A DNA stretch of 10,915 bases. Source: Bdellovibrionales bacterium RBG_16_40_8. GTDB taxonomy: Bacteria > Bdellovibrionota > Bdellovibrionia > Bdellovibrionales > UBA1609. The stretch covers positions 324-11,238 of the forward strand of contig MEPT01000017.1 in assembly GCA_001769925.1 (NCBI GenBank). Reading direction: 5' to 3'. The notes under the pieces were generated by a model, which was not told where the DNA came from, searched no databases, and saw nothing but the letters and a program-made list of their open reading frames with translations. Below are positions 1-10,068 of the stretch, piece after piece. Made by a program: the position numbers and the translations under genes. The first letter of the stretch is position 1. Every line of letters starts with the position of its first letter.

Positions 1-944
1 TTATAGATTTAGCCAAAGACGTAAAAAAGCAGGTTTTCGTAGCAACATCTGGCGGAGAGGTTGAGCTTGATAAAACTGTTATAGAAAAAATAATAGACCC
101 ACTTGCTCATTTAGTGCGAAACGCCGTAGATCATGGCATTGAAATACCAGAAGTTCGGCGGCAAAATAATAAAGAGCCATCTGGAGTTATCTTAATTACT
201 GCTACGCAAGACACGTTTGGTGTTGTTTTAACAATCAGAGATAATGGTTATGGGCTTTCAGCTGATAAAATATTAAAAAAAGCAATTGAAAAGAACATAG
301 TACAACACGAAAACAATCTTTCGCAAAATGAAATATTTAATCTAATAATGCTACCCGGGTTTTCTACAGCAGATACAATTACTGATTTATCTGGCCGCGG
401 TATTGGGATGAGTGTTGTTAGCAAGGCCGTTAAAGAATTGCACGGGACAATTGATATAGAAAGTTGTGAAAATAAGGGCACTGCATTTATTATTACACTA
501 CCAACCTCAGTTAATATTATCGATGGCATGCTTGTAAGGCTTTGTGGGCAAAATTATGTTATACCGGTCAATTCTGTTGAAGAGGTCATAAATACGCAAA
601 CTTGTCTTTTTAATTCAACAAATACGATGTTAAATTTGCGCGGACACGTAATACCAATTTATGACTTATCAGAAGCTCTTCATCATCAGATAAGTTTTGA
701 AAAATGCGAAATGCATACCTTGCTTATTTGTAGAGACCAGCATGAAAAAATTGGTTTTCGCGTAGAGAAAGTTATAGGTCAGCAACAAATTGTAATTCGC
801 TCACTTAATGAAAATATAAGTGGGGCTTTTGGTATTCTTGGAGGAACAATTTTAGGCAACGGAGAGCCAGGACTTATTGTCGATATACCTTTACTAGTAA
901 AACATTTTATTAGCGTAGTTAGACCACAGGAGATTGCGGCGTGA
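1..944 (+). CDS. cheA: Chemotaxis histidine kinase CheA, C-terminal part (5' end outside window)
   Basis: This is the C-terminal 314 codons of CheA, the kinase that phosphorylates receiver domains in response to receptor state. The frame is open from base 3 back to the window edge, so the GTG at 114 is internal and the gene starts upstream. Visible parts, counted from base 3: the end of the dimerization/ATPase junction; the N-box HLVRNAVDHGIE (about residues 36-47); the G1-box DNGYGL (about 80-85); GFSTA (about 119-123); and the G2-box GRGIGMSVV (about 132-140). After that comes the CheW-like regulatory P5 domain, ending in the typical GGTILGNGEPGLIVDIP stretch. The G2-box has Ser where CheA usually has Asp (GRGVGMDVV). 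No receiver domain is fused at the C-terminus. The P1 phosphotransfer domain cannot be seen. The stop overlaps the cheW start (GTGA), so the two are probably translationally coupled. Confidence 0.95.
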   Translation, partial: IDLAKDVKKQVFVATSGGEVELDKTVIEKIIDPLAHLVRNAVDHGIEIPEVRRQNNKEPSGVILITATQDTFGVVLTIRDNGYGLSADKILKKAIEKNIVQHENNLSQNEIFNLIMLPGFSTADTITDLSGRGIGMSVVSKAVKELHGTIDIESCENKGTAFIITLPTSVNIIDGMLVRLCGQNYVIPVNSVEEVINTQTCLFNSTNTMLNLRGHVIPIYDLSEALHHQISFEKCEMHTLLICRDQHEKIGFRVEKVIGQQQIVIRSLNENISGAFGILGGTILGNGEPGLIVDIPLLVKHFISVVRPQEIAA

Positions 945-1384
945 AAGATAATGAAATAAGATTTATTATTTATAAAATAGGAGAAGAGCTTTACGGAAGT
1001 CCTCTACTATCAGTAAGAGAAGTTCTTGAATTTCAAAAGCCTAAATACATGCCCAACATGGTAAAATATTTTTCAGGCGTAATTAATGTTCGCGGGGTAA
1101 TTGTCGGCGTTGTAGATATGCGAGTAAAATTTGGCTTCTCTGAAGATATAAGTCGAAAAACAGCCATGCTACTTTGCGATACTGACAATGGACTGGTCGC
1201 CGCCATCGTCGACAGCGTAGAATGCGTTTTGCAAATAACCGCAGAAGAATTAGATAAAAACCCCCCAATTAAATCAAGAATTGCTCGTGATTATCTTATT
1301 GGCGTTGCTAAAATTAAGGGCGATTTGATCACAATAGTAGATCTGCATAAGTCTTTAGCTAATGATGAATTGAAGGCTGCGTAG
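941..1384 (+). CDS. cheW: CheW coupling protein
   Basis: CheW is a cytoplasmic adaptor that links the chemoreceptor tip to the P5 domain of CheA. The 147-residue product is a single CheW domain of usual length. It begins with a strand IRFIIYKIGEELYG, carries the signature GVINVRGVIVGVVDMRVKFG at about residues 46-65, and ends with a typical GVAKIKGDLITIVDL strand. The common Pro in 'RGxIVPVIDL' is Gly here. The GTG start at 941 is supported by AGGAG at 928-932, 8 nt upstream, and by the 4-nt overlap with the cheA stop. A receptor gene follows within 10 nt. Assignment to CheW is secure; which receptor cluster it serves is inferred from the operon. Confidence 0.95.
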   Translation: MKDNEIRFIIYKIGEELYGSPLLSVREVLEFQKPKYMPNMVKYFSGVINVRGVIVGVVDMRVKFGFSEDISRKTAMLLCDTDNGLVAAIVDSVECVLQITAEELDKNPPIKSRIARDYLIGVAKIKGDLITIVDLHKSLANDELKAA

Positions 1385-1392
1385 GAGTGAAT

Positions 1393-2997
1393 ATGTATAA
1401 ACGACTCAAGAGTATATCCGCGAAAATAATACTACTTACGTCGGTTATTCTCTTTACCCAAATTATTACTGCATTTACCTCTTTATACTATACTAAAGTT
1501 GTACTTAATAATATAAAACATATAAATGAACTTGAACTTCCGATAACAAGAATACTAAATTATTCAAATATTCTTTATAGCAAAGTAAATCACACCGAAA
1601 TACCGAAAAATCAAAGAGATATAGAAAATATAGATTCGTATCTTGCAGCTCTTTCATTATTTAATACCAATGATATTAATAAAAATACTATCGAAAAATT
1701 AAATAATATACTTAATGAACTAACCAAAGTGAGCGTAAAGCTTACAGATACAGTTGTAACCGCTGACAATAAATTAACTGAAAATTTGCTACGAATTTTT
1801 ATAAATAATATGTCAGAACTTAATAAAATAACGTCAGATTTAACTGTAGTAATTGAAAATAAGAAGCATAAGGTTTCTGATATGAATCAGAGCATAGTAC
1901 AGACAATTATCTTTACATCTGTGCTTGGATTTGTGTTGAGCATAGCACTTGCCGGACTATTTTTAAAATTTATACAAAAAGAAATGCGTACTAGCATAAG
2001 TAAACTAAAAAATGCGGTACAAAGCACAGACAATCTCAGCATTACTTTAAGTAAAAACTCTATGGCGCTTAGCAGCGCCTCGCAAGAACAGGCGGCCGCT
2101 ATTCAAGAATCGGTCTCAGCACTAAGTGAAATGAGTAGTATGATATCGCAAACAGGTCAAAACGCAAAATATACTCTTACAACGTCTGAAGATGCTCTAC
2201 AAAAAAGCTTTGAAGGAAAACAAATTATGGAGCGCATGTTATTTAGTATGTCTTCGATTCAAAAATCTAATGTCCAATTGCAAGAGCTATCGCAAGTTAT
2301 AGATGATATAAATACCAAAACAAGCGTTATCAATGATATTGTTTTTAAAACACAGCTTCTTTAATTTAACGCCGCAATAGAGGCTGCGCGCGCTGGGCAA
2401 CATGGGCGAGGCTTTGCCGTCGTTGCAGAAGAAGTGGGCAATTTAGCCGAGATAAGTGGGCAATCCGCAAAAGAAATCGAAATATTGATTAGCGATAGCC
2501 AACGTAAAGTCAAAGAAACCCTAGAATCAATTCATCTACGCGTACACGAAGGAAATAAAGTTTGCGAGCAAGCAAGACAAGCTTTTAATATAATTTCTCA
2601 GAAAATTTCTGAGATAAATTCACAGGCTAGAGCAATTAATGAAGCCGCTGAGCAACAAGAAATGGGTGTTCAGCAAACTAATGCAGCTATGAAACAAATG
2701 GATCAAACATCGCAAATAAATAGTTCAAGCGCAAATTATTCTTACGAAACTAGCGATGAGCTTAAAAGGCAAAGTGAAAAATTGCAAAATATAACACAAG
2801 AGCTTCAGTTGCTAATAGGTGGCAAGACAGTGCTGCACGAAACAAAAACTGACGAATCATCACAAAATATATCAAGCTCAGATAATAGCGATATAACAGA
2901 AAATAAACGTCTTGAATTGCTAGCAGACGAAATTATAAGTCAGGGCGAAAAGCGCCTAAGACATTTAAATGCTGACGATAAGACAAAAGTGGCATAA
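1393..2997 (+). pseudogene. Methyl-accepting chemotaxis protein with an in-frame TAA in the signalling tip
   Basis: A membrane chemoreceptor interrupted by one stop codon (TAA, 2362-2364). The two halves, 1393-2361 and 2365-2997, are in the same frame, so there is no indel. Read through, it has 534 positions: TM1 at about residues 12-33; a periplasmic helical sensor of about 135 residues; TM2 at about 171-193; then, with no recognisable HAMP domain, a cytoplasmic coiled coil. The hairpin tip reads [22 protein letters not shown], then [15 protein letters not shown]. The stop is at codon 324, where related receptors have Ser, Ala or Thr, so one substitution such as TCA to TAA explains it. The truncated product would lack half of the tip that binds CheA and CheW. 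ATG 1393 is preferred over GTG 1387 because GGAG (1384-1387) sits 5 nt before it. There is no CheR/CheB tether pentapeptide at the C-terminus. It may be a pseudogene, a readthrough gene or a sequencing error. Confidence 0.85.
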
Positions 2998-3017: not shown

Positions 3018-4874
3018 ATGGGACTATCACAAAAAGAAATCGACATTATATATCATCTAGCAGAAAAATTAACTGGCTCATCACATAAAGGTAATTATAA
3101 AAAAGAAGCCATTATAGGTAACGTAAAAAAAAGAATAGTAGCACTTAAAAAAAAATCCCTGCAAGAATACCTACAAATCGTTAGCCGTGATCCCATCGAG
3201 CATAAAAATTTTCTTTCTGCCCTGACCAATCACACTACTTCTTGGTTTAGAGAATCCCCACATTTTGAAGTATTATATAAATATATAAAAGATAATAAAA
3301 CTAAATTTGCCAATAAGCCGGTAAGAATATGGTCAGTCGCTTGTTCAACTGGTCAAGAGCCATACTCATTAGCTTTATTTTTAGAAAATATAAAACATGA
3401 GTTGGGGTTAACAGACTATAAAATATATGCAAGCGATATAGATCAAAAAAGTGTAGAAGCTAGCATGCAGGCACACTATCCGACAGAAGAGTTAGTGGCT
3501 ATACCTAGTCAATTTCACCAGTGGCTAGAATTAAGTCATAATAAAATCAATTCGTGTTTCAGCATTACAATGCAGATTAAGAAGCACTGTAAATTTTTTG
3601 TTCATAATTTATTTTTAAAGTTTCCTTATAAGAATGAACAGCCTTTTGATATATTGGTTTGCAGAAATGTTCTTATATATTTTGAGCCTAATGTCGTACA
3701 ACAAGTTATGAAAACATTATGTAGTAATATTTTAGATGATGGGCTTCTTATTCTCGGACATAGCGAAGCACTTACTAAGAAAAATGATCATTTAGTTTCA
3801 CTAGGACACGCTTGTTATAAATATTCGTCCTCGGCCATACATAATGCCGAATATAAAATCAGTAAAGAAATAAAAAAAACAGCCCTTATCATTGATGACT
3901 CTGCGACAATACGACTAGCACTAACTAAAATACTAGTTTCAGCCGGCATGAATGTTGTAGAGTGCGCAGATGCCGAAAGTGCTTCAGTAAAAATACGTTT
4001 ACATCAATTTGATATAATCATACTCGATCTTAATCTACCAGGCGAAAATGGCTCTAGCTGGCTAAAGAGAAGCCGCTCAATTGGCCTTAAAACACCTGTT
4101 GTAATAGTTAGTGATTCATCACCGAAAGAGGCAGAAAATATTTTTGGCATATTAGAGTGCGGAGCACAAGATTTTATGACAAAAAAACAACTAAGTGAAA
4201 AACCAGATAAATTCTCAGAAGTTGTAAAATCGATCACTGAAGATAAAAATGTAATATTATTCACTAAAAGTTTACTGCGAACATTCTTTTTTGATGATTT
4301 TAAACCTGAGGTTATCCTGATAGGAGCAAGTACTGGCGGACCTGGCGCATTAGCGCAGCTACTTGAAAGATTCCCCCTACCCTGCCCGCCAGTAATAGTA
4401 ATACAACATATTAATTCAGACTACGCAAAGGCGTTAAGCAGAAGACTTTCTGATGTTTCAGGTCTTATGCAAATAGATAATTTAAACTCACCTCTACTGC
4501 CAAACTCAATATACATTGCCCAGGGCGATTACCATCTTGAAATAGTTAGAAGAGGAAATTCGCTGCATATTAGAACTAATGAGGATGCAAAGCAATCTGG
4601 GCACAGACCCTGTATCGACAAATTATTTTTATCTGCGGCAAAGGCGCAAGCTAGTTCGATATCGATTCTACTTACTGGTATGGGCGAAGATGGCGCCGCA
4701 GGAATGCTTGAGCTAGCAAATAGTAAAAAATCATACACTATGGTGCAAGACGAATTGTCATCTGTTGTTTTTGGTATGCCGCGAAGTGCAATTGAACGTA
4801 AAGCGGTATCATTTATTGGAGATATAAAAACTCTGCGCGATGAAGTAATAAAACGCGTTCGAGAAAGCAAATGA
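3018..4874 (+). CDS. CheR-receiver-CheB fusion, copy 1 (receptor methyltransferase plus methylesterase)
   Basis: A 618-residue protein that should both methylate (CheR) and demethylate or deamidate (CheB) chemoreceptor glutamates. Residues 1-70 form the CheR N-terminal helical domain, ending in TSWFRESPHF. Residues 75-275 form the SAM-dependent methyltransferase, with ACSTGQEPYS (Cys109), ASDID, CRNVLIYF (Cys215-Phe222) and LGHSEAL. Residues 288-405 form a receiver with acidic pair Asp293/Asp294, phospho-acceptor Asp337 (LDLNLPG) and Lys389. Residues 430-615 form the CheB methylesterase, with Ser438 in GASTGG, His464 in IQHI and Asp558 in LTGMGEDGA; the 26- and 94-residue gaps fit the CheB family. 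All catalytic residues are present. Known CheB-CheR fusions normally put CheB first, so this order is uncommon. The gene starts 20 nt after the receptor frame with only a weak RBS (GACGAG) and overlaps copy 2 by ATGA. No single standard symbol fits. Confidence 0.93.
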   Translation: MGLSQKEIDIIYHLAEKLTGSSHKGNYKKEAIIGNVKKRIVALKKKSLQEYLQIVSRDPIEHKNFLSALTNHTTSWFRESPHFEVLYKYIKDNKTKFANKPVRIWSVACSTGQEPYSLALFLENIKHELGLTDYKIYASDIDQKSVEASMQAHYPTEELVAIPSQFHQWLELSHNKINSCFSITMQIKKHCKFFVHNLFLKFPYKNEQPFDILVCRNVLIYFEPNVVQQVMKTLCSNILDDGLLILGHSEALTKKNDHLVSLGHACYKYSSSAIHNAEYKISKEIKKTALIIDDSATIRLALTKILVSAGMNVVECADAESASVKIRLHQFDIIILDLNLPGENGSSWLKRSRSIGLKTPVVIVSDSSPKEAENIFGILECGAQDFMTKKQLSEKPDKFSEVVKSITEDKNVILFTKSLLRTFFFDDFKPEVILIGASTGGPGALAQLLERFPLPCPPVIVIQHINSDYAKALSRRLSDVSGLMQIDNLNSPLLPNSIYIAQGDYHLEIVRRGNSLHIRTNEDAKQSGHRPCIDKLFLSAAKAQASSISILLTGMGEDGAAGMLELANSKKSYTMVQDELSSVVFGMPRSAIERKAVSFIGDIKTLRDEVIKRVRESK

Positions 4875-6775
4875 ATAAAATTAAAGCTCATGAAAGAGAA
4901 ATTTTGTATAAGGTTGTTGAAGAACTTACCGGCACTAGTCAAAAGGGCCAATTTCGCAAAGAAATTTTTATCTCATCTATATCTTCGCGGATGAAAAAAC
5001 TAAATCTTGATACTCTCGCAGATTACCTGAGACGCGTACGAAACGATAATGCTGAGTTTGACTACTTTCTTTCATCAATAACAATTCATACTACGTCATG
5101 GTTTCGCGAGTCACCTCACTTTGATTTAACAATTAAATTTGTTAGTGATTATTTAAAAAATAATATTAATAAAACTTTACGTGTTTTAGTTCTCGGGTGC
5201 TCAACAGGACAAGAGGTCTACTCTTTAGGTTTATGCCTTGAAAAAATACGATGCGAGAATAATTTATTTAACTACGAAATTCACGGCCTAGATATAGATT
5301 CGAAAAGTATCGAGAAGGCAAAATTAGCTTTATACGATGAATCAGAACTTGAGCAAATACCAGAAGAATATTCTTTTTTTATTAATATTAATAAAAAATC
5401 TTATGGCGATAAATTTTCTTTAGGCAAAAATATTCTTGATCGTTGTAGATTTTATGTTGGAAATATAAAAGATGAGTTTAATTTAGGGTCATTTACCGAG
5501 TTTCAAATTATTTTTATACGAAATGTTCTAATTTATTTTGACCCTGATAAATGCTCGCAAATTATTGACCATATTTTAAAATTTTTAACTATAAACGGAC
5601 TATTAGTTCTTGGACATAGCGAGTCTCTTTCGATTATACCGCCTGAGCTAACTCAATATGGCCCCTCTTGTTATAAGAAAACAAATAAAAAAAATACCGA
5701 TATTAGTAAACGTGCTTATTTTGCTCCACGCACAATACAAAAAAAGCACCTACTAATAATTGATACATTGCCAACCATAAAAGCGCCGCTTAAAGCCTTA
5801 TTTGAAAAAAATGGGTACACTGTTGATTCTGCCGATATATTATCAGATGCCACTAAAAATATAGCAAATCAGCACTATGATTTAATAACTTTATGCCTAA
5901 ATTTAACAGCAGAAAAAGAGATCGCGTGGATAAAACAGCAATGCGGAAAAAACAATTTGAAAATACCTATAATTATATTATCTGAATCTGATGCCCATGA
6001 GGCAACATCAGTTTTTGACGCTCTAGCGTCAGGAGCACAAATTTATTTTACTAAAGACATTGTATTTTCAAGTCCAAATGAAATTATAGAAGCCGCTAAT
6101 TCTCTTACTAAAGAAAAACTACCTGCACATCTTAACTTTCCCTCGGCGCTTTCAAAACCGCACTTAAAACATATTTCACCAAAGTTAATTATAATTGGTG
6201 CATCAACTGGAGGCCCTAATGCAATTTGGCGCCTTTTGCGAAATATGCCACAAATTTGCCCACCTATTTTGATAGTACAACATATGCAAGCTTCTTTTTT
6301 AGCAGAATTTGCTAAAACAGTTAGTGAAATTTCAAATTTAAAACTTGGGAGCAGCAAAAATTTTGAAAAATTAGAGAATAATCATATCTATCTTGCTCAT
6401 GATGACTATCATATTGAAGTGAAAAAAAAAGACGGAGCACTTGTTCTGCACCATTCAACTGCCGAACCATTAAATAGACATCGCCCAAGCATTGACAAAC
6501 TTTTTTTGTCCGTGGCCGATCTTAAAATACCAGCAATTGCTATATTACTAACTGGTATGGGGCGTGATGGCGCCTATGGCCTTTTAAAACTTAGCCAAAC
6601 TGGGTTAGCCTATACTCTTGCTGAATCTGAGCAGTCATGCATGTTATACGGAATGTCTAAAGAGGCCATCGAGATAGGCGCAGTAAGCTATGTTGGCACA
6701 ATTGATGAGTTGCGCGACCAACTCGATATATGCCTTCGCCTAAAATATTCTAATAATATTGCCTCGGCGCAATGA
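4871..6775 (+). CDS. CheR-receiver-CheB fusion, copy 2, with a degenerate receiver
   Basis: A 634-residue tandem paralogue of the preceding gene with the same domain order. The CheR N-terminal domain ends in TSWFRESPHF. The methyltransferase keeps GCSTGQE (followed by VYS, not PYS), GLDID, IRNVLIYF (Ile replaces the usual Cys) and LGHSESL. The receiver spans about residues 293-410. The CheB domain (about 437-625) has the full triad: Ser445 in GASTGG, His471 in VQHM and Asp566 in LTGMGRDGA. The receiver is degenerate: the acidic pair is Asp298-Thr299, and the phospho-acceptor position is Cys342 (LCLNLT, aligned with LDLNLP in copy 1), while Lys395 is kept. It therefore should not be phosphorylated in the normal way, and its methylesterase may be constitutive, permanently inhibited, or controlled through partner contacts (inference). 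The ATGA overlap implies coupled translation and near-equal dosage. It is the last chemotaxis gene; ABC exporter remnants begin within about 10 nt. Confidence 0.92.
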   Translation: MNKIKAHEREILYKVVEELTGTSQKGQFRKEIFISSISSRMKKLNLDTLADYLRRVRNDNAEFDYFLSSITIHTTSWFRESPHFDLTIKFVSDYLKNNINKTLRVLVLGCSTGQEVYSLGLCLEKIRCENNLFNYEIHGLDIDSKSIEKAKLALYDESELEQIPEEYSFFININKKSYGDKFSLGKNILDRCRFYVGNIKDEFNLGSFTEFQIIFIRNVLIYFDPDKCSQIIDHILKFLTINGLLVLGHSESLSIIPPELTQYGPSCYKKTNKKNTDISKRAYFAPRTIQKKHLLIIDTLPTIKAPLKALFEKNGYTVDSADILSDATKNIANQHYDLITLCLNLTAEKEIAWIKQQCGKNNLKIPIIILSESDAHEATSVFDALASGAQIYFTKDIVFSSPNEIIEAANSLTKEKLPAHLNFPSALSKPHLKHISPKLIIIGASTGGPNAIWRLLRNMPQICPPILIVQHMQASFLAEFAKTVSEISNLKLGSSKNFEKLENNHIYLAHDDYHIEVKKKDGALVLHHSTAEPLNRHRPSIDKLFLSVADLKIPAIAILLTGMGRDGAYGLLKLSQTGLAYTLAESEQSCMLYGMSKEAIEIGAVSYVGTIDELRDQLDICLRLKYSNNIASAQ

Positions 6776-6782
6776 AAATTAA

Positions 6783-7372
6783 TTACTCATATACTTAGGC
6801 GCTCGCATTTCTGAGAACATTCTACTCTCAACAGGCAATGCCCCACCACAACCATATAAGGTCGTCGGAAGTTTGAAACTCGGTATACAACAAGTTTAAA
6901 TAGCTATGATAAAGTTCAAAGTTGGGATGAAGCAAACGCCAATTTTCTACAGGTATTTCGCTTTCAAGATATTTTTAGAATTTTTATTACAGTTGGTATT
7001 TTATTAATCGCTTCTTTCGGTATTTATAATGTATTGAGCATTATCGTAAATCAAAAACGAAGAGAAATAGCAATTTTGAGCTCATTAGGTTATCCTCCAC
7101 GAGATATTTTAAATCTATTTCTCATTCAAGGGGTAATTTTAGGATTTTCTGGTGCCGTTCTTGGATTATTTGTTGGATTTTTTCTTTGTGTTTATATGGG
7201 CTCTTTAGATTTTGATATGATGGGGCAAAAAGGTCTTTTAGTTTCATACAATCCAAGTATTTATATTGGCGCATTTCTAATGGCATTTATTTCTTCAATT
7301 ATGGCAAGTATTCTACCTGCACGAACAGCTAGTCGCATGACCCCAATTGATATTATTCGTATGGAGGGCTGA
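6783..7372 (+). pseudogene. ABC exporter permease remnant (FtsX/MacB/LolE-like), truncated and frameshifted
   Basis: Pieces of one permease lie in two frames. In frame 3 (6783-6896), a peptide containing LGARISENILLSTGN and YKVVGSLKLGIQQV resembles the periplasmic region of LolE/MacB/DevC-like permeases; it ends at TAA 6897-6899. In frame 2 (from about 6900 to 7372), the protein continues with SYDKVQSWDEANANFLQVF, then a transmembrane segment with the family motif ASFGIYNVL, then KRREIAILSSLGY, two more transmembrane segments, and the end LPARTASRMTPIDIIRMEG. The last part is the FtsX domain (PF02687-type). The stretch expected between GIQQV and the SW motif, roughly 50-60 residues in relatives, is missing, so the frame change probably marks an internal deletion near 6890-6905. 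The N-terminal half with TM1 is absent; cheRB copy 2 occupies its place. No good start codon or RBS serves the C-terminal open frame. An ATPase remnant follows directly. Confidence 0.8.
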
Positions 7373-7505: not shown

Positions 7506-7543
7506 GATCAACTTGCTCTAACTGTGCATACTACTGTGATTGT

Positions 7544-7559
7544 TGGCATTAGATGTGCA
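7544..7559 (+). promoter_or_regulatory. Possible sigma-54 (-24/-12) promoter element
   Basis: TGGCATTAGATGTGCA resembles the sigma-54 consensus TGGCAC-N5-TTGC: TGGCA and TGC are present and the GG and GC pairs have the required 12-bp offset. Mismatches are T for C after TGGCA and G for T before TGC. Transcription would start near 7570, leaving a leader of about 12 nt containing the GAGG ribosome site. The leader is short, and a match of this quality can occur by chance in AT-rich DNA. The 21-bp repeats lie about 65-98 bp upstream of that start, a plausible place for an enhancer-binding protein. Confidence 0.3.
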
Positions 7560-7581
7560 ACCAAATAAGATGAGGTGTGAT

Positions 7582-8493
7582 ATGGATAGCTCGATTGATT
7601 CTTTTGTTGATAAAAAAGTAATGGTGCTGCGCGAGACTGATGAGGTTATAAAGGCAGCTAGAGCTATGGGTGAGGGTCAGGTTGGATGTGTGGTTGTAGC
7701 AGATAATGAGGGGCATATAAGCGGGATTGTGACAGACAGAGACATAGCTTGCAATCTTGTCTCAAACGAAATGGATCCACATACGAAACTTAGCGAAATC
7801 ATGGAGACCGATGTCGTATCACTTTCTTCTGAAAGCACACTTGAACAGGCGATTATGCTACTTAAAGAAAATGGCATTAGAAGATTACCAATCATAGAAG
7901 AAACCAAACATAAAAAGCAGCGTTGCATTGGCATTTTGACTTTAGATGATCTAATTGCCGGACAATTCTTAAATATCAATGATCTTAGCGAGATTATTAA
8001 AACACAAATTCAACGTAAAAAACGTTTGTTAGGCAAAAGTAAAAATAATGAAAATAAATTAAGCAACGCTTATCACAAATTTATTTCACTGACGTCTATC
8101 GAAATTGATCTTAACGAAATTGAAACTGAAGAGGTTGTGCGATTCATTGTTGGCTCAATTGTACGTCGACTGCACTATACAGGAGGCGCTCATCTTATTG
8201 CTAACCTACCTAAGCAATTTCAAGAAGAAATGCTTGATTTACCAGCTGGCCCTGATCGAAATATTACCAGTAACTCGTTGATTCAAGGCGTCGCGCTGCG
8301 TACAGGTAAAAGTTTGCCTGAATCAGCTGAAATTATCTACAAATTTTGGCAAATTTTTCGTAAACTAATTGGTGTGGGTAGTGCAGATCATATTTTGCAC
8401 CAACTACCTGAGTCCATGCGCGAGGGTTTCGAAAAGTTAGTTAATTTAAACGACGAGGTAAATCATGAATCAAGACGTGAGCTTTCCGTATGA
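7582..8493 (+). CDS. CBS-domain pair protein with C-terminal DUF2267
   Basis: A 303-residue cytoplasmic protein. Residues 8-60 and 74-128 are two CBS domains, with the typical ends GIVTDRDIA (48-56) and GILTLDDLI (117-125); such pairs bind adenosine nucleotides and act as energy or stress sensors. A charged, Lys-rich linker (about 138-165) leads to a C-terminal DUF2267-like region in two halves (about 183-222 and 231-287), recognisable from the alternating VVRFIVGSIVRRL, GGAHLIANLP and SADHILHQLPE patterns. The biochemical role of DUF2267 is unknown. ATG 7582 is chosen because GAGG (7572-7575) lies 6 nt upstream; TTG 7540 and ATG 7570 extend the frame but lack a usable ribosome site. The gene overlaps the HPF-like gene by 29 nt, so the pair is co-transcribed. 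CBS and HPF proteins both fit a stress or stationary-phase unit (inference). Confidence 0.85.
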   Translation: MDSSIDSFVDKKVMVLRETDEVIKAARAMGEGQVGCVVVADNEGHISGIVTDRDIACNLVSNEMDPHTKLSEIMETDVVSLSSESTLEQAIMLLKENGIRRLPIIEETKHKKQRCIGILTLDDLIAGQFLNINDLSEIIKTQIQRKKRLLGKSKNNENKLSNAYHKFISLTSIEIDLNEIETEEVVRFIVGSIVRRLHYTGGAHLIANLPKQFQEEMLDLPAGPDRNITSNSLIQGVALRTGKSLPESAEIIYKFWQIFRKLIGVGSADHILHQLPESMREGFEKLVNLNDEVNHESRRELSV

Positions 8494-8821
8494 TATTAGT
8501 TTTCCAGATTTTAAACCATCAGAGGCTGTATCTGTAGATGTTGAGAAGTATTTAAAAAAATTAGAAAGACTTTATGACAGAATCGTCTCTTGTCATGTGG
8601 CGGTTCGTGCTCCACACAAACATCACAAAAATCATATTTATCATGTACACATTAGATTAAAAATTCCCGGAGAAGATATTGTGGTAAATCGTGAGCCTGA
8701 AAAAAATTATTCTCACGCTGACATGCACGTCGCTATTCGTGATGCATTCAACGCCCTTCATAAACAATTAAGAGAACGGGTTAAACAAATGAGGTCGCAC
8801 CATCACGGTGAGGACGAATAA
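8465..8821 (+). CDS. HPF/RaiA-type ribosome-associated protein (short form)
   Basis: A 118-residue protein of the S30AE family, whose members bind the 30S subunit near the decoding site and promote ribosome hibernation; the older name is sigma-54 modulation protein. Visible family features are the helix VEKYLKKLERLYDRIVSCHV, the strand HIYHVHIRLKIPGEDIVVNR with its preceding basic and His-rich turn HKHHKNH, and the second helix DMHVAIRDAFNALHKQLRE. The C-terminus is a short basic/His tail (MRSHHHGEDE) without the dimerizing domain of long HPF. ATG 8465 lies inside the end of the CBS gene and has GAGG at 8455-8458, 6 nt upstream. Its 3' end overlaps the convergent rhomboid gene by 41 nt. Confidence 0.88.
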   Translation: MNQDVSFPYDISFPDFKPSEAVSVDVEKYLKKLERLYDRIVSCHVAVRAPHKHHKNHIYHVHIRLKIPGEDIVVNREPEKNYSHADMHVAIRDAFNALHKQLRERVKQMRSHHHGEDE

Positions 8822-9399: not shown

Positions 9400-10068
9400 C
9401 TAATGAAGGTAAGCCGCTGTCACACGGTAAAAATAATTATCAAGATCTTTAGTGAAAAAACGATGTATGCCGTTGCGGCCAGAATTTTGCCACTCTTTAT
9501 ATGCCGATACAGGTGACCACTTCTGATAAAATACACGATATAAGGCAACAACTAATCCCGTACGATCAATACCATATTCACAATGTATATAAGCTGGACG
9601 CTCGGGTGTCGCTTGTGACATAAGTTGCAAGGCCTCTTGAATATCTGATTCTTCTTTACTTGTTACTTCGGCATGACTATTAAGGGGGAAATTGGCAAAT
9701 CGCACTCCCCTGTTTTCAAAATAAACTCTTTCGGCCTCTATATTTTCACTTAATTCGCCTGGCTGAGTCAAAAAAGAATAAAAACCCTCTATAGTGTCAT
9801 CAATATCTCCGCCTTGAAGGTTAATGTCTAAAGCTATACCTAACCTCACCAATTGAAATGCCCCATCACCATTACGTAAACGCGTGAAAGGGTTTGCACC
9901 ACGATAAATGGCAGATGTTACTTGAGCAAAATTTGGGATATCACGGCGCAAATACTCAATAATTGAACTATTGCCAGCAGAATAGGCTTGCTTGGGGGAA
10001 AATAATAAATTAAGCGGCAAAATTAAAAAAATGAGTGAATATTTTAAACTCGCTTTAATCTTATACAT
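9400..10068 (-). CDS. Exported tyrosine/dual-specificity phosphatase-like protein
   Basis: A 222-residue protein with an N-terminal signal peptide: basic MYKIKASLK, a hydrophobic core at about residues 11-23, and a likely signal peptidase I site near QAYSA (27-31). The mature part has the cysteine-phosphatase P-loop HCEYGIDRTG (His162, Cys163, Arg169), the C-x5-R motif of PTP/DSP enzymes; the DRTG form is common in bacterial secreted relatives. The following helix LVVALYRVFYQKWSPVSAYKEW also fits that group. The exact substrate (phosphotyrosine, phosphoinositide or inositol phosphate) cannot be told. ATG 10068 is preceded by a strong AGGAGG at 10080-10075, 6 nt away. A downstream rhomboid gene is probably co-transcribed. 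The predicted location is periplasmic or outside the cell. Confidence 0.82.
   Translation of the reverse strand: MYKIKASLKYSLIFLILPLNLLFSPKQAYSAGNSSIIEYLRRDIPNFAQVTSAIYRGANPFTRLRNGDGAFQLVRLGIALDINLQGGDIDDTIEGFYSFLTQPGELSENIEAERVYFENRGVRFANFPLNSHAEVTSKEESDIQEALQLMSQATPERPAYIHCEYGIDRTGLVVALYRVFYQKWSPVSAYKEWQNSGRNGIHRFFTKDLDNYFYRVTAAYLH

What the first reader, a model, noticed from the sequence alone, without database searches (positions are those of the whole stretch)
3018..6775. Tandem pair of CheR-receiver-CheB fusion genes
Two adjacent, ATGA-coupled genes each fuse the receptor methyltransferase, a receiver and the methylesterase in one chain, in the order CheR-REC-CheB. The catalytic residues of both enzymes are visible in both copies. 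Opposing activities in one polypeptide raise the question of how a futile methylation cycle is avoided, and whether the phosphorylated receiver switches between the two. Known CheB-CheR fusions generally have CheB first and lack this tandem duplication, as far as I know.
Basis: partly seen in the sequence, partly recalled or inferred. Interest (0 to 1): 0.72.

Follow-up and report, generated by a model that had tools for sequence, protein, structure and literature searches.

The report
Paired CheR-receiver-CheB fusions, one switch lost
Two neighbouring bacterial genes each join the enzymes that add and remove methyl groups on chemosensory receptors; the pair looks old rather than freshly duplicated, and the second copy has lost the aspartate through which such proteins are switched by phosphorylation.

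Summary
Two ORFs (3018-4874, 4871-6775, ATGA overlap) each read CheR-receiver-CheB, with all checked CheR and CheB catalytic residues. (1) The order is not rare in this phylum (Bdellovibrionota by hit names): 31 of 368 genomes, this one included, and 217 of 243 retrieved proteins. (2) The pair is not a recent duplication: the copies fall in separate clades (AU p=0.0076 against sisterhood) and three other genomes carry both. In 3 of 3 other pair loci the fusions flank a hybrid histidine kinase and an Hpt-like gene; neither lies between the window's copies. I infer an ancestral cassette cheA-cheW-mcp-cheRB1-HHK-Hpt-cheRB2, copy 1 fed by CheA and copy 2 by its own phosphorelay, an input lost here together with the acceptor Asp. 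Caveats: four loci, no biochemistry, and an in-frame stop in the window's MCP, so local decay is a serious rival. Ten searches of an incomplete library found no paper on this architecture. Verdict: a new variant of a known kind.

The parts
3..944 (+). cheA, 3' part (HATPase_c and CheW-like domains); the gene runs to the contig edge upstream
   Evidence: Pfam HATPase_c and CheW; contig C17 ORF 2-1267
941..1384 (+). cheW
   Evidence: Pfam CheW E 2.1e-26
1387..2997 (+). mcp chemoreceptor, interrupted by one in-frame TAA at 2362-2364
   Evidence: two ORFs in one frame; MCPsignal profile 127.8 bits across 1 TAA, the only one of 5 MCP matches in the genome with a stop
3018..4874 (+). copy 1 (cheRB1), CheR-receiver-CheB fusion, 618 aa, receiver acceptor Asp intact
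3234..3794 (+). copy 1 CheR domain
   Evidence: Pfam residues 73-259
3885..4190 (+). copy 1 receiver; acceptor Asp337 codon 4026-4028
   Evidence: Pfam residues 290-391; residue check
4314..4841 (+). copy 1 CheB methylesterase domain
   Evidence: Pfam residues 433-608
4871..4874 (+). ATGA stop/start overlap of the two fusions
   Evidence: sequence
4871..6775 (+). copy 2 (cheRB2), CheR-receiver-CheB fusion, 634 aa, receiver degenerate
5090..5632 (+). copy 2 CheR domain
   Evidence: Pfam residues 74-254
5753..6088 (+). copy 2 degenerate receiver: Thr299 (5765-5767) at an acidic-pocket Asp, Cys342 (5894-5896) at the phospho-acceptor Asp
   Evidence: Pfam residues 295-406; alignments
6188..6724 (+). 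copy 2 CheB methylesterase domain
   Evidence: Pfam residues 440-618

Best explanation
The two genes are an old pair of adaptation enzymes of one chemosensory operon (cheA-cheW-mcp-cheRB1-cheRB2). In each chain CheR methylates and CheB demethylates chemoreceptors at a fixed 1:1 enzyme ratio. In copy 1 the receiver covers the CheB active site until CheA phosphorylates it, as in ordinary CheB, so CheA activity tips the balance to demethylation while CheR runs constitutively; that handles the 'futile cycle' much as separate CheR and CheB do. Copy 2 descends from a paralogue whose receiver was probably fed by its own hybrid kinase-Hpt phosphorelay, encoded between the two fusions in relatives. In the window lineage those genes are not there and the acceptor Asp has become Cys, so copy 2 should be a phosphorylation-blind methylase with a closed or weakly active esterase. 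Shown: architecture, catalytic residues, separate clades, kinase and Hpt-like genes in the other pair loci, none between the window's copies. Inferred: enzyme activities, CheA as donor for copy 1, the relay as former donor for copy 2, the order of losses.
For: Domain order and cut-offs; residues. CheB-like geometry: VIA aligns receiver+CheB of the models with closed CheB 1a2o over 317 residues at 2.8 A (copy 1) and 317 at 3.1 A (copy 2) (pLDDT 91.1 and 89.7). Copies 1 and 2 in separate clades; AU p 0.0076 against sisterhood. Pair loci of G112, G215, G364 read cheA-cheW-mcp-fusion1-HHK-Hpt-fusion2. Of the CheW and CheA ORFs of 31 loci, the three best CheW matches and three of the four best CheA matches to the window come from these three loci. 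No match to the Hpt profile in the window genome at E 1e-5. In fetched loci 41 of 41 whole receiver-CheB ORFs without CheR keep the acceptor Asp. Unmodified CheB is mostly closed, about 7% open by one estimate (PMC8609364, passages).
Against: Only four pair loci in genomes, so the link between relay absence and Asp loss rests on one event; P0091 (Asp to Asn, paired with P0005) has unknown context. One of three Hpt-like ORFs is below the Pfam cut-off (15.5 against 24.6 bits). Copy 2 monophyly is weak (73/58). Relay-to-receiver pairing is inferred from gene order alone; the genome has other hybrid-type kinases (best 37% identity), is 93.8% complete, and a moved kinase is not excluded. The operon's own MCP carries a stop. 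Foldseek's own superposition on 1a2o is looser: 5.7 A over 349 columns and 5.3 A over 346. pTM 0.65/0.62 leaves the CheR position open, and both models came from alignments made mostly of intact receivers. G080, single copy 1, also has an altered acidic pocket.
Confidence: 0.5

Rival explanations
1. The cluster is decaying. The receiver change, the missing relay, the stop in the receptor and the gene fragment downstream are all steps of loss, and copy 2 has no distinct role.
For: In-frame TAA in the MCP; FtsX-type fragment downstream; the copy 2 receiver diverged more than its enzymes (z -2.6 against 223 fusions with intact receivers).
Against: Both fusions are open over more than 600 codons and keep every CheR and CheB catalytic residue checked; cheW and the part of cheA present are open.
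Confidence: 0.3
2. Copy 2's receiver is a working pseudo-receiver: it still binds CheB or a partner and signals without phosphate, perhaps through the Cys.
For: The receiver is still recognised by Pfam (36.2 bits, cut-off 30.2) and aligns with CheB's receiver; a second Asp to Cys case exists, P0217.
Against: P0217 has no Pfam receiver in the listing and strong receiver divergence (z -6.0); 26 of 243 retrieved proteins have no receiver at all, so the domain can be dispensed with.
Confidence: 0.12
3. The pair is a recent local tandem duplication in this lineage.
For: Adjacent, overlapping genes of equal architecture; no full-length fusion match in the five held genomes of the same genus, three of them only 76-78% complete.
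Against: 37% identity; copies lie in different clades and sisterhood is rejected, p 0.0076.
Confidence: 0.03

Closest known systems
Canonical CheB (receiver-methylesterase), e.g. 1a2o, 6ymz
   Same: Receiver, linker and esterase in the same order and a similar predicted arrangement; the Ser, His and Asp positions checked are kept
   Different: CheR is joined in front; in copy 2 the receiver lacks the usual acceptor Asp
Canonical CheR (1af7, 1bc5)
   Same: Sequence and fold match
   Different: Followed by receiver and CheB in one chain; CheR_N only weakly matched in copy 2 (20.2 bits, cut-off 27) and not listed in copy 1
CheB-CheR fusions (CheB first, often with PAS and kinase domains)
   Same: Both opposing enzymes in one chain; this genome has a 1616-aa example on C43; cheBR fusions are counted in Geobacter genomes (PMC8396549, passages)
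   Different: Order reversed, and the receiver sits between the enzymes
CheR-receiver-CheB single-copy fusions of the phylum
   Same: Same architecture and mostly the same operon partners
   Different: Most fetched loci have one copy; names given by sources include 'chemotaxis protein CheB'; no NCBIfam model over its cut-off among the 25 shown for copy 1 and the 15 for copy 2
CheB lacking a receiver (F3 class of Campylobacterota)
   Same: Precedent for a CheB without its own receiver (PMC9239204, passages)
   Different: There it is described as an auxiliary CheB, not as a CheR fusion

Membership tests
CheR-receiver-CheB fusion family | CheR, receiver, CheB in this order in one chain | tested here: met
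   Pfam, both copies
CheR-receiver-CheB fusion family | CheR and CheB catalytic residues kept | tested here: met
   positions checked
Phospho-regulated CheB | Phosphorylatable receiver (acidic pair, acceptor Asp, Lys), copy 1 | tested here: met
Phospho-regulated CheB | Phosphorylatable receiver (acidic pair, acceptor Asp, Lys), copy 2 | tested here: not met
   Thr299 and Cys342; copy 2 belongs by descent and architecture, not as a phospho-regulated CheB
CheB-CheR (CheB-first) fusion | CheB N-terminal to CheR | tested here: not met
Paired cheRB1/cheRB2 cassette | One copy from each of two clades in one operon with cheA-cheW-mcp | tested here: met
   copy 2 clade support weak (73/58)
Paired cheRB1/cheRB2 cassette | Hybrid kinase and Hpt gene between the copies | tested here: not met
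   Present in 3 of 3 other pair loci (one Hpt below the Pfam cut-off); the window's copies overlap with nothing between; no match to the Hpt profile in the genome at E 1e-5
Receptor methyltransferase/methylesterase | Measured methylation and demethylation of MCPs | not testable with these tools
   needs biochemistry

The most novel reading that the evidence does not exclude
A chemosensory array with two paired methylation/demethylation fusion enzymes, one under CheA and one under an independent hybrid kinase-Hpt phosphorelay, so that a second signal resets receptor methylation; the window shows the same cassette after that second input was cut out, leaving a phosphorylation-blind bifunctional enzyme.
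Probability: 0.4. Interest if true: 0.7.

Novelty: new variant of a known kind. Interest (0 to 1): 0.5.

Why it matters
Adaptation in chemotaxis is usually drawn as one feedback loop: CheA phosphorylates CheB, which opposes a constitutive CheR. A natural pair of fused CheR-CheB enzymes with separate phospho-inputs would be a ready system for asking how a second signal can set receptor methylation, and what happens when a bifunctional adaptation enzyme loses its switch. The series seen here (two receivers, one, a changed one, none) makes the role of the receiver directly testable.

Tried and rejected
Rare architecture: rejected. Recent duplication: rejected by tree. Receiver loss as a general feature of CheB here: 41 of 41 whole receiver-CheB ORFs without CheR in the fetched loci keep the acceptor Asp. 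A higher loss rate in fusions is not shown: 8 of 237 against 0 of 41 gives p 0.61, and the larger count (34 of 263 against 0 of 41, p 0.007) is inflated, because 21 of the 26 receiver-less proteins came from a search with a receiver-less query. In the fetched loci 33 of 35 whole CheR-receiver-CheB ORFs, the window's two included, keep the acceptor; window copy 2 and G138 do not. An earlier control of 58 units was replaced because some fetched stretches were cut inside larger two-receiver fusions. Receiver-less fusions as part of the copy 2 clade: seen with weak support, outside it in the 263-row FastTree, so left open. G112's second copy, a long branch, was left out of the careful tree; it lies with copy 2. 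Two fusions in G051 lie in other clades. Named-genome scan: one Alphaproteobacterial locus only, 36% over residues 331-389, not used. RNA families in the window: none over gathering score. Relay moved elsewhere: the relative's kinase finds 36 matches in the own genome, best 37% over residues 255-620; inconclusive. The context of the nine contigs with inferred pairs could not be read, as metagenome scans are capped at 0.

Full report
What is there. The window (contig C17 of a 2.47-Mb draft genome, 93.8% complete) holds the 3' part of cheA, cheW, an mcp, and two ATGA-overlapping genes of 618 and 634 aa. Pfam finds CheR, receiver and CheB in that order, above cut-off, in both. The catalytic positions checked in CheR and CheB are kept in both (position labels recalled). 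The organism is placed in Bdellovibrionota only from names that sources give to some homologues (Bdellovibrio sp., Pseudobdellovibrionaceae and others); the genome itself is unnamed.

In copy 2 the phospho-acceptor Asp of the receiver is Cys342 and one acidic-pocket Asp is Thr299. Among 120 proteins, the window's two included, the acceptor is Asp in 118, Cys in copy 2 and Asn in P0091. In a set of 263 fusions, 223 have an intact site, 26 have no receiver, 8 have lost the acceptor Asp and 6 have another change in the pocket or Lys, one of these an unresolved X. That set is not a fair sample of rates, since searched with a receiver-less query.

How common it is. Matches at E 1e-140 occur in 31 of 368 genomes of the phylum, this one included; one of these, G127, covers only part of the profile, and only 3 candidates per genome were scored. 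Of 243 retrieved proteins, the window's two included, 217 are CheR-receiver-CheB and 26 CheR-CheB. The operon partners cheA, cheW and mcp recur around the fusion in the fetched loci, with variations in order and presence. Other forms occur too, such as nine whole CheR-receiver-receiver-CheB fusions.

How old the pair is. In trees built without the receiver columns the copies fall in different clades. Copy 1 has support 92/89, copy 2 only 73/58; sisterhood of the window copies is rejected, p 0.0076. Three other genomes carry a copy 1 and a copy 2 in one locus (G112, G215, G364). Nine further pairs are inferred because two proteins list the same longest-contig length; in 9 of 9 one member is in each clade.

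The relay. In those three loci a hybrid histidine kinase (HisKA, HATPase, receiver) and a 114-124 aa ORF lie between the fusions. The small ORF is Hpt above the Pfam cut-off of 24.6 in two and below it in one (27.9, 27.0 and 15.5 bits), with a shared His in a HALxGA stretch. Among 40 loci scanned the strong Hpt matches are these three, from which the profile was built; two weak ones are 26.6 and 16.4 bits, the latter in a cheA. Over 368 genomes the next best match is 54.9 bits against 171.6-180.5, and the window genome has none at E 1e-5. G112's second fusion has a degenerate CheR (17.4 bits, cut-off 27) but keeps the receiver acceptor, the mirror image of the window's copy 2.

Mechanism. Passages of PMC8609364 describe closed, low-activity and open, phosphorylated CheB, with about 7% of unmodified enzyme open by their estimate. 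By analogy copy 1 should be an ordinary phospho-switched CheB with CheR attached, and copy 2 mostly closed or weakly active. That one chain fixes the CheR:CheB ratio is inference. The window's MCP has two methylation-type motifs in the part before its stop.

Literature. Ten searches gave no paper that, in the listings and in the passages read of nine papers (PMC2829493, PMC8067016, PMC10767990, PMC10924463, PMC3447774, PMC9239204, PMC8396549, PMC8609364, PMC2577667), describes CheR-receiver-CheB. The library lacks most subscription journals and no paper was read whole, so earlier description cannot be excluded.

Noticed in passing
2362-2364: In-frame TAA inside the MCP signalling domain; the other four MCP matches in the genome have none. 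Real nonsense or assembly error cannot be told apart here.
   Followed up: partly
7034-7372: FtsX-type permease C-terminal fragment (112 aa) downstream of the pair, looking like a gene remnant.
   Followed up: no
7540-8493 and 8465-8821: CBS-DUF2267 protein overlapping a small gene of the S30AE / sigma 54 modulation family.
   Followed up: no
9400-10068, minus strand: ORF with an HCxxGxxR motif like dual-specificity phosphatases (motif recalled); no NCBIfam match at E 0.001.
   Followed up: no
L087:11107-12876: Second fusion of G112 has lost CheR residues checked (R98, D154, Tyr positions) while CheB and the receiver acceptor are kept.
   Followed up: partly
L166-L169, L171-L174 (791-840 aa) and L184 (1181 aa): Nine whole CheR-receiver-receiver-CheB fusions, both receivers intact in 9 of 9.
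   Followed up: partly
P0019, P0020: Fusions with the CheB catalytic Ser replaced by Gly while the CheR residues checked are kept.
   Followed up: no
L105:6374-7816 (G003, same genus): CheR-CheB fusion of 480 aa with no receiver.
   Followed up: partly
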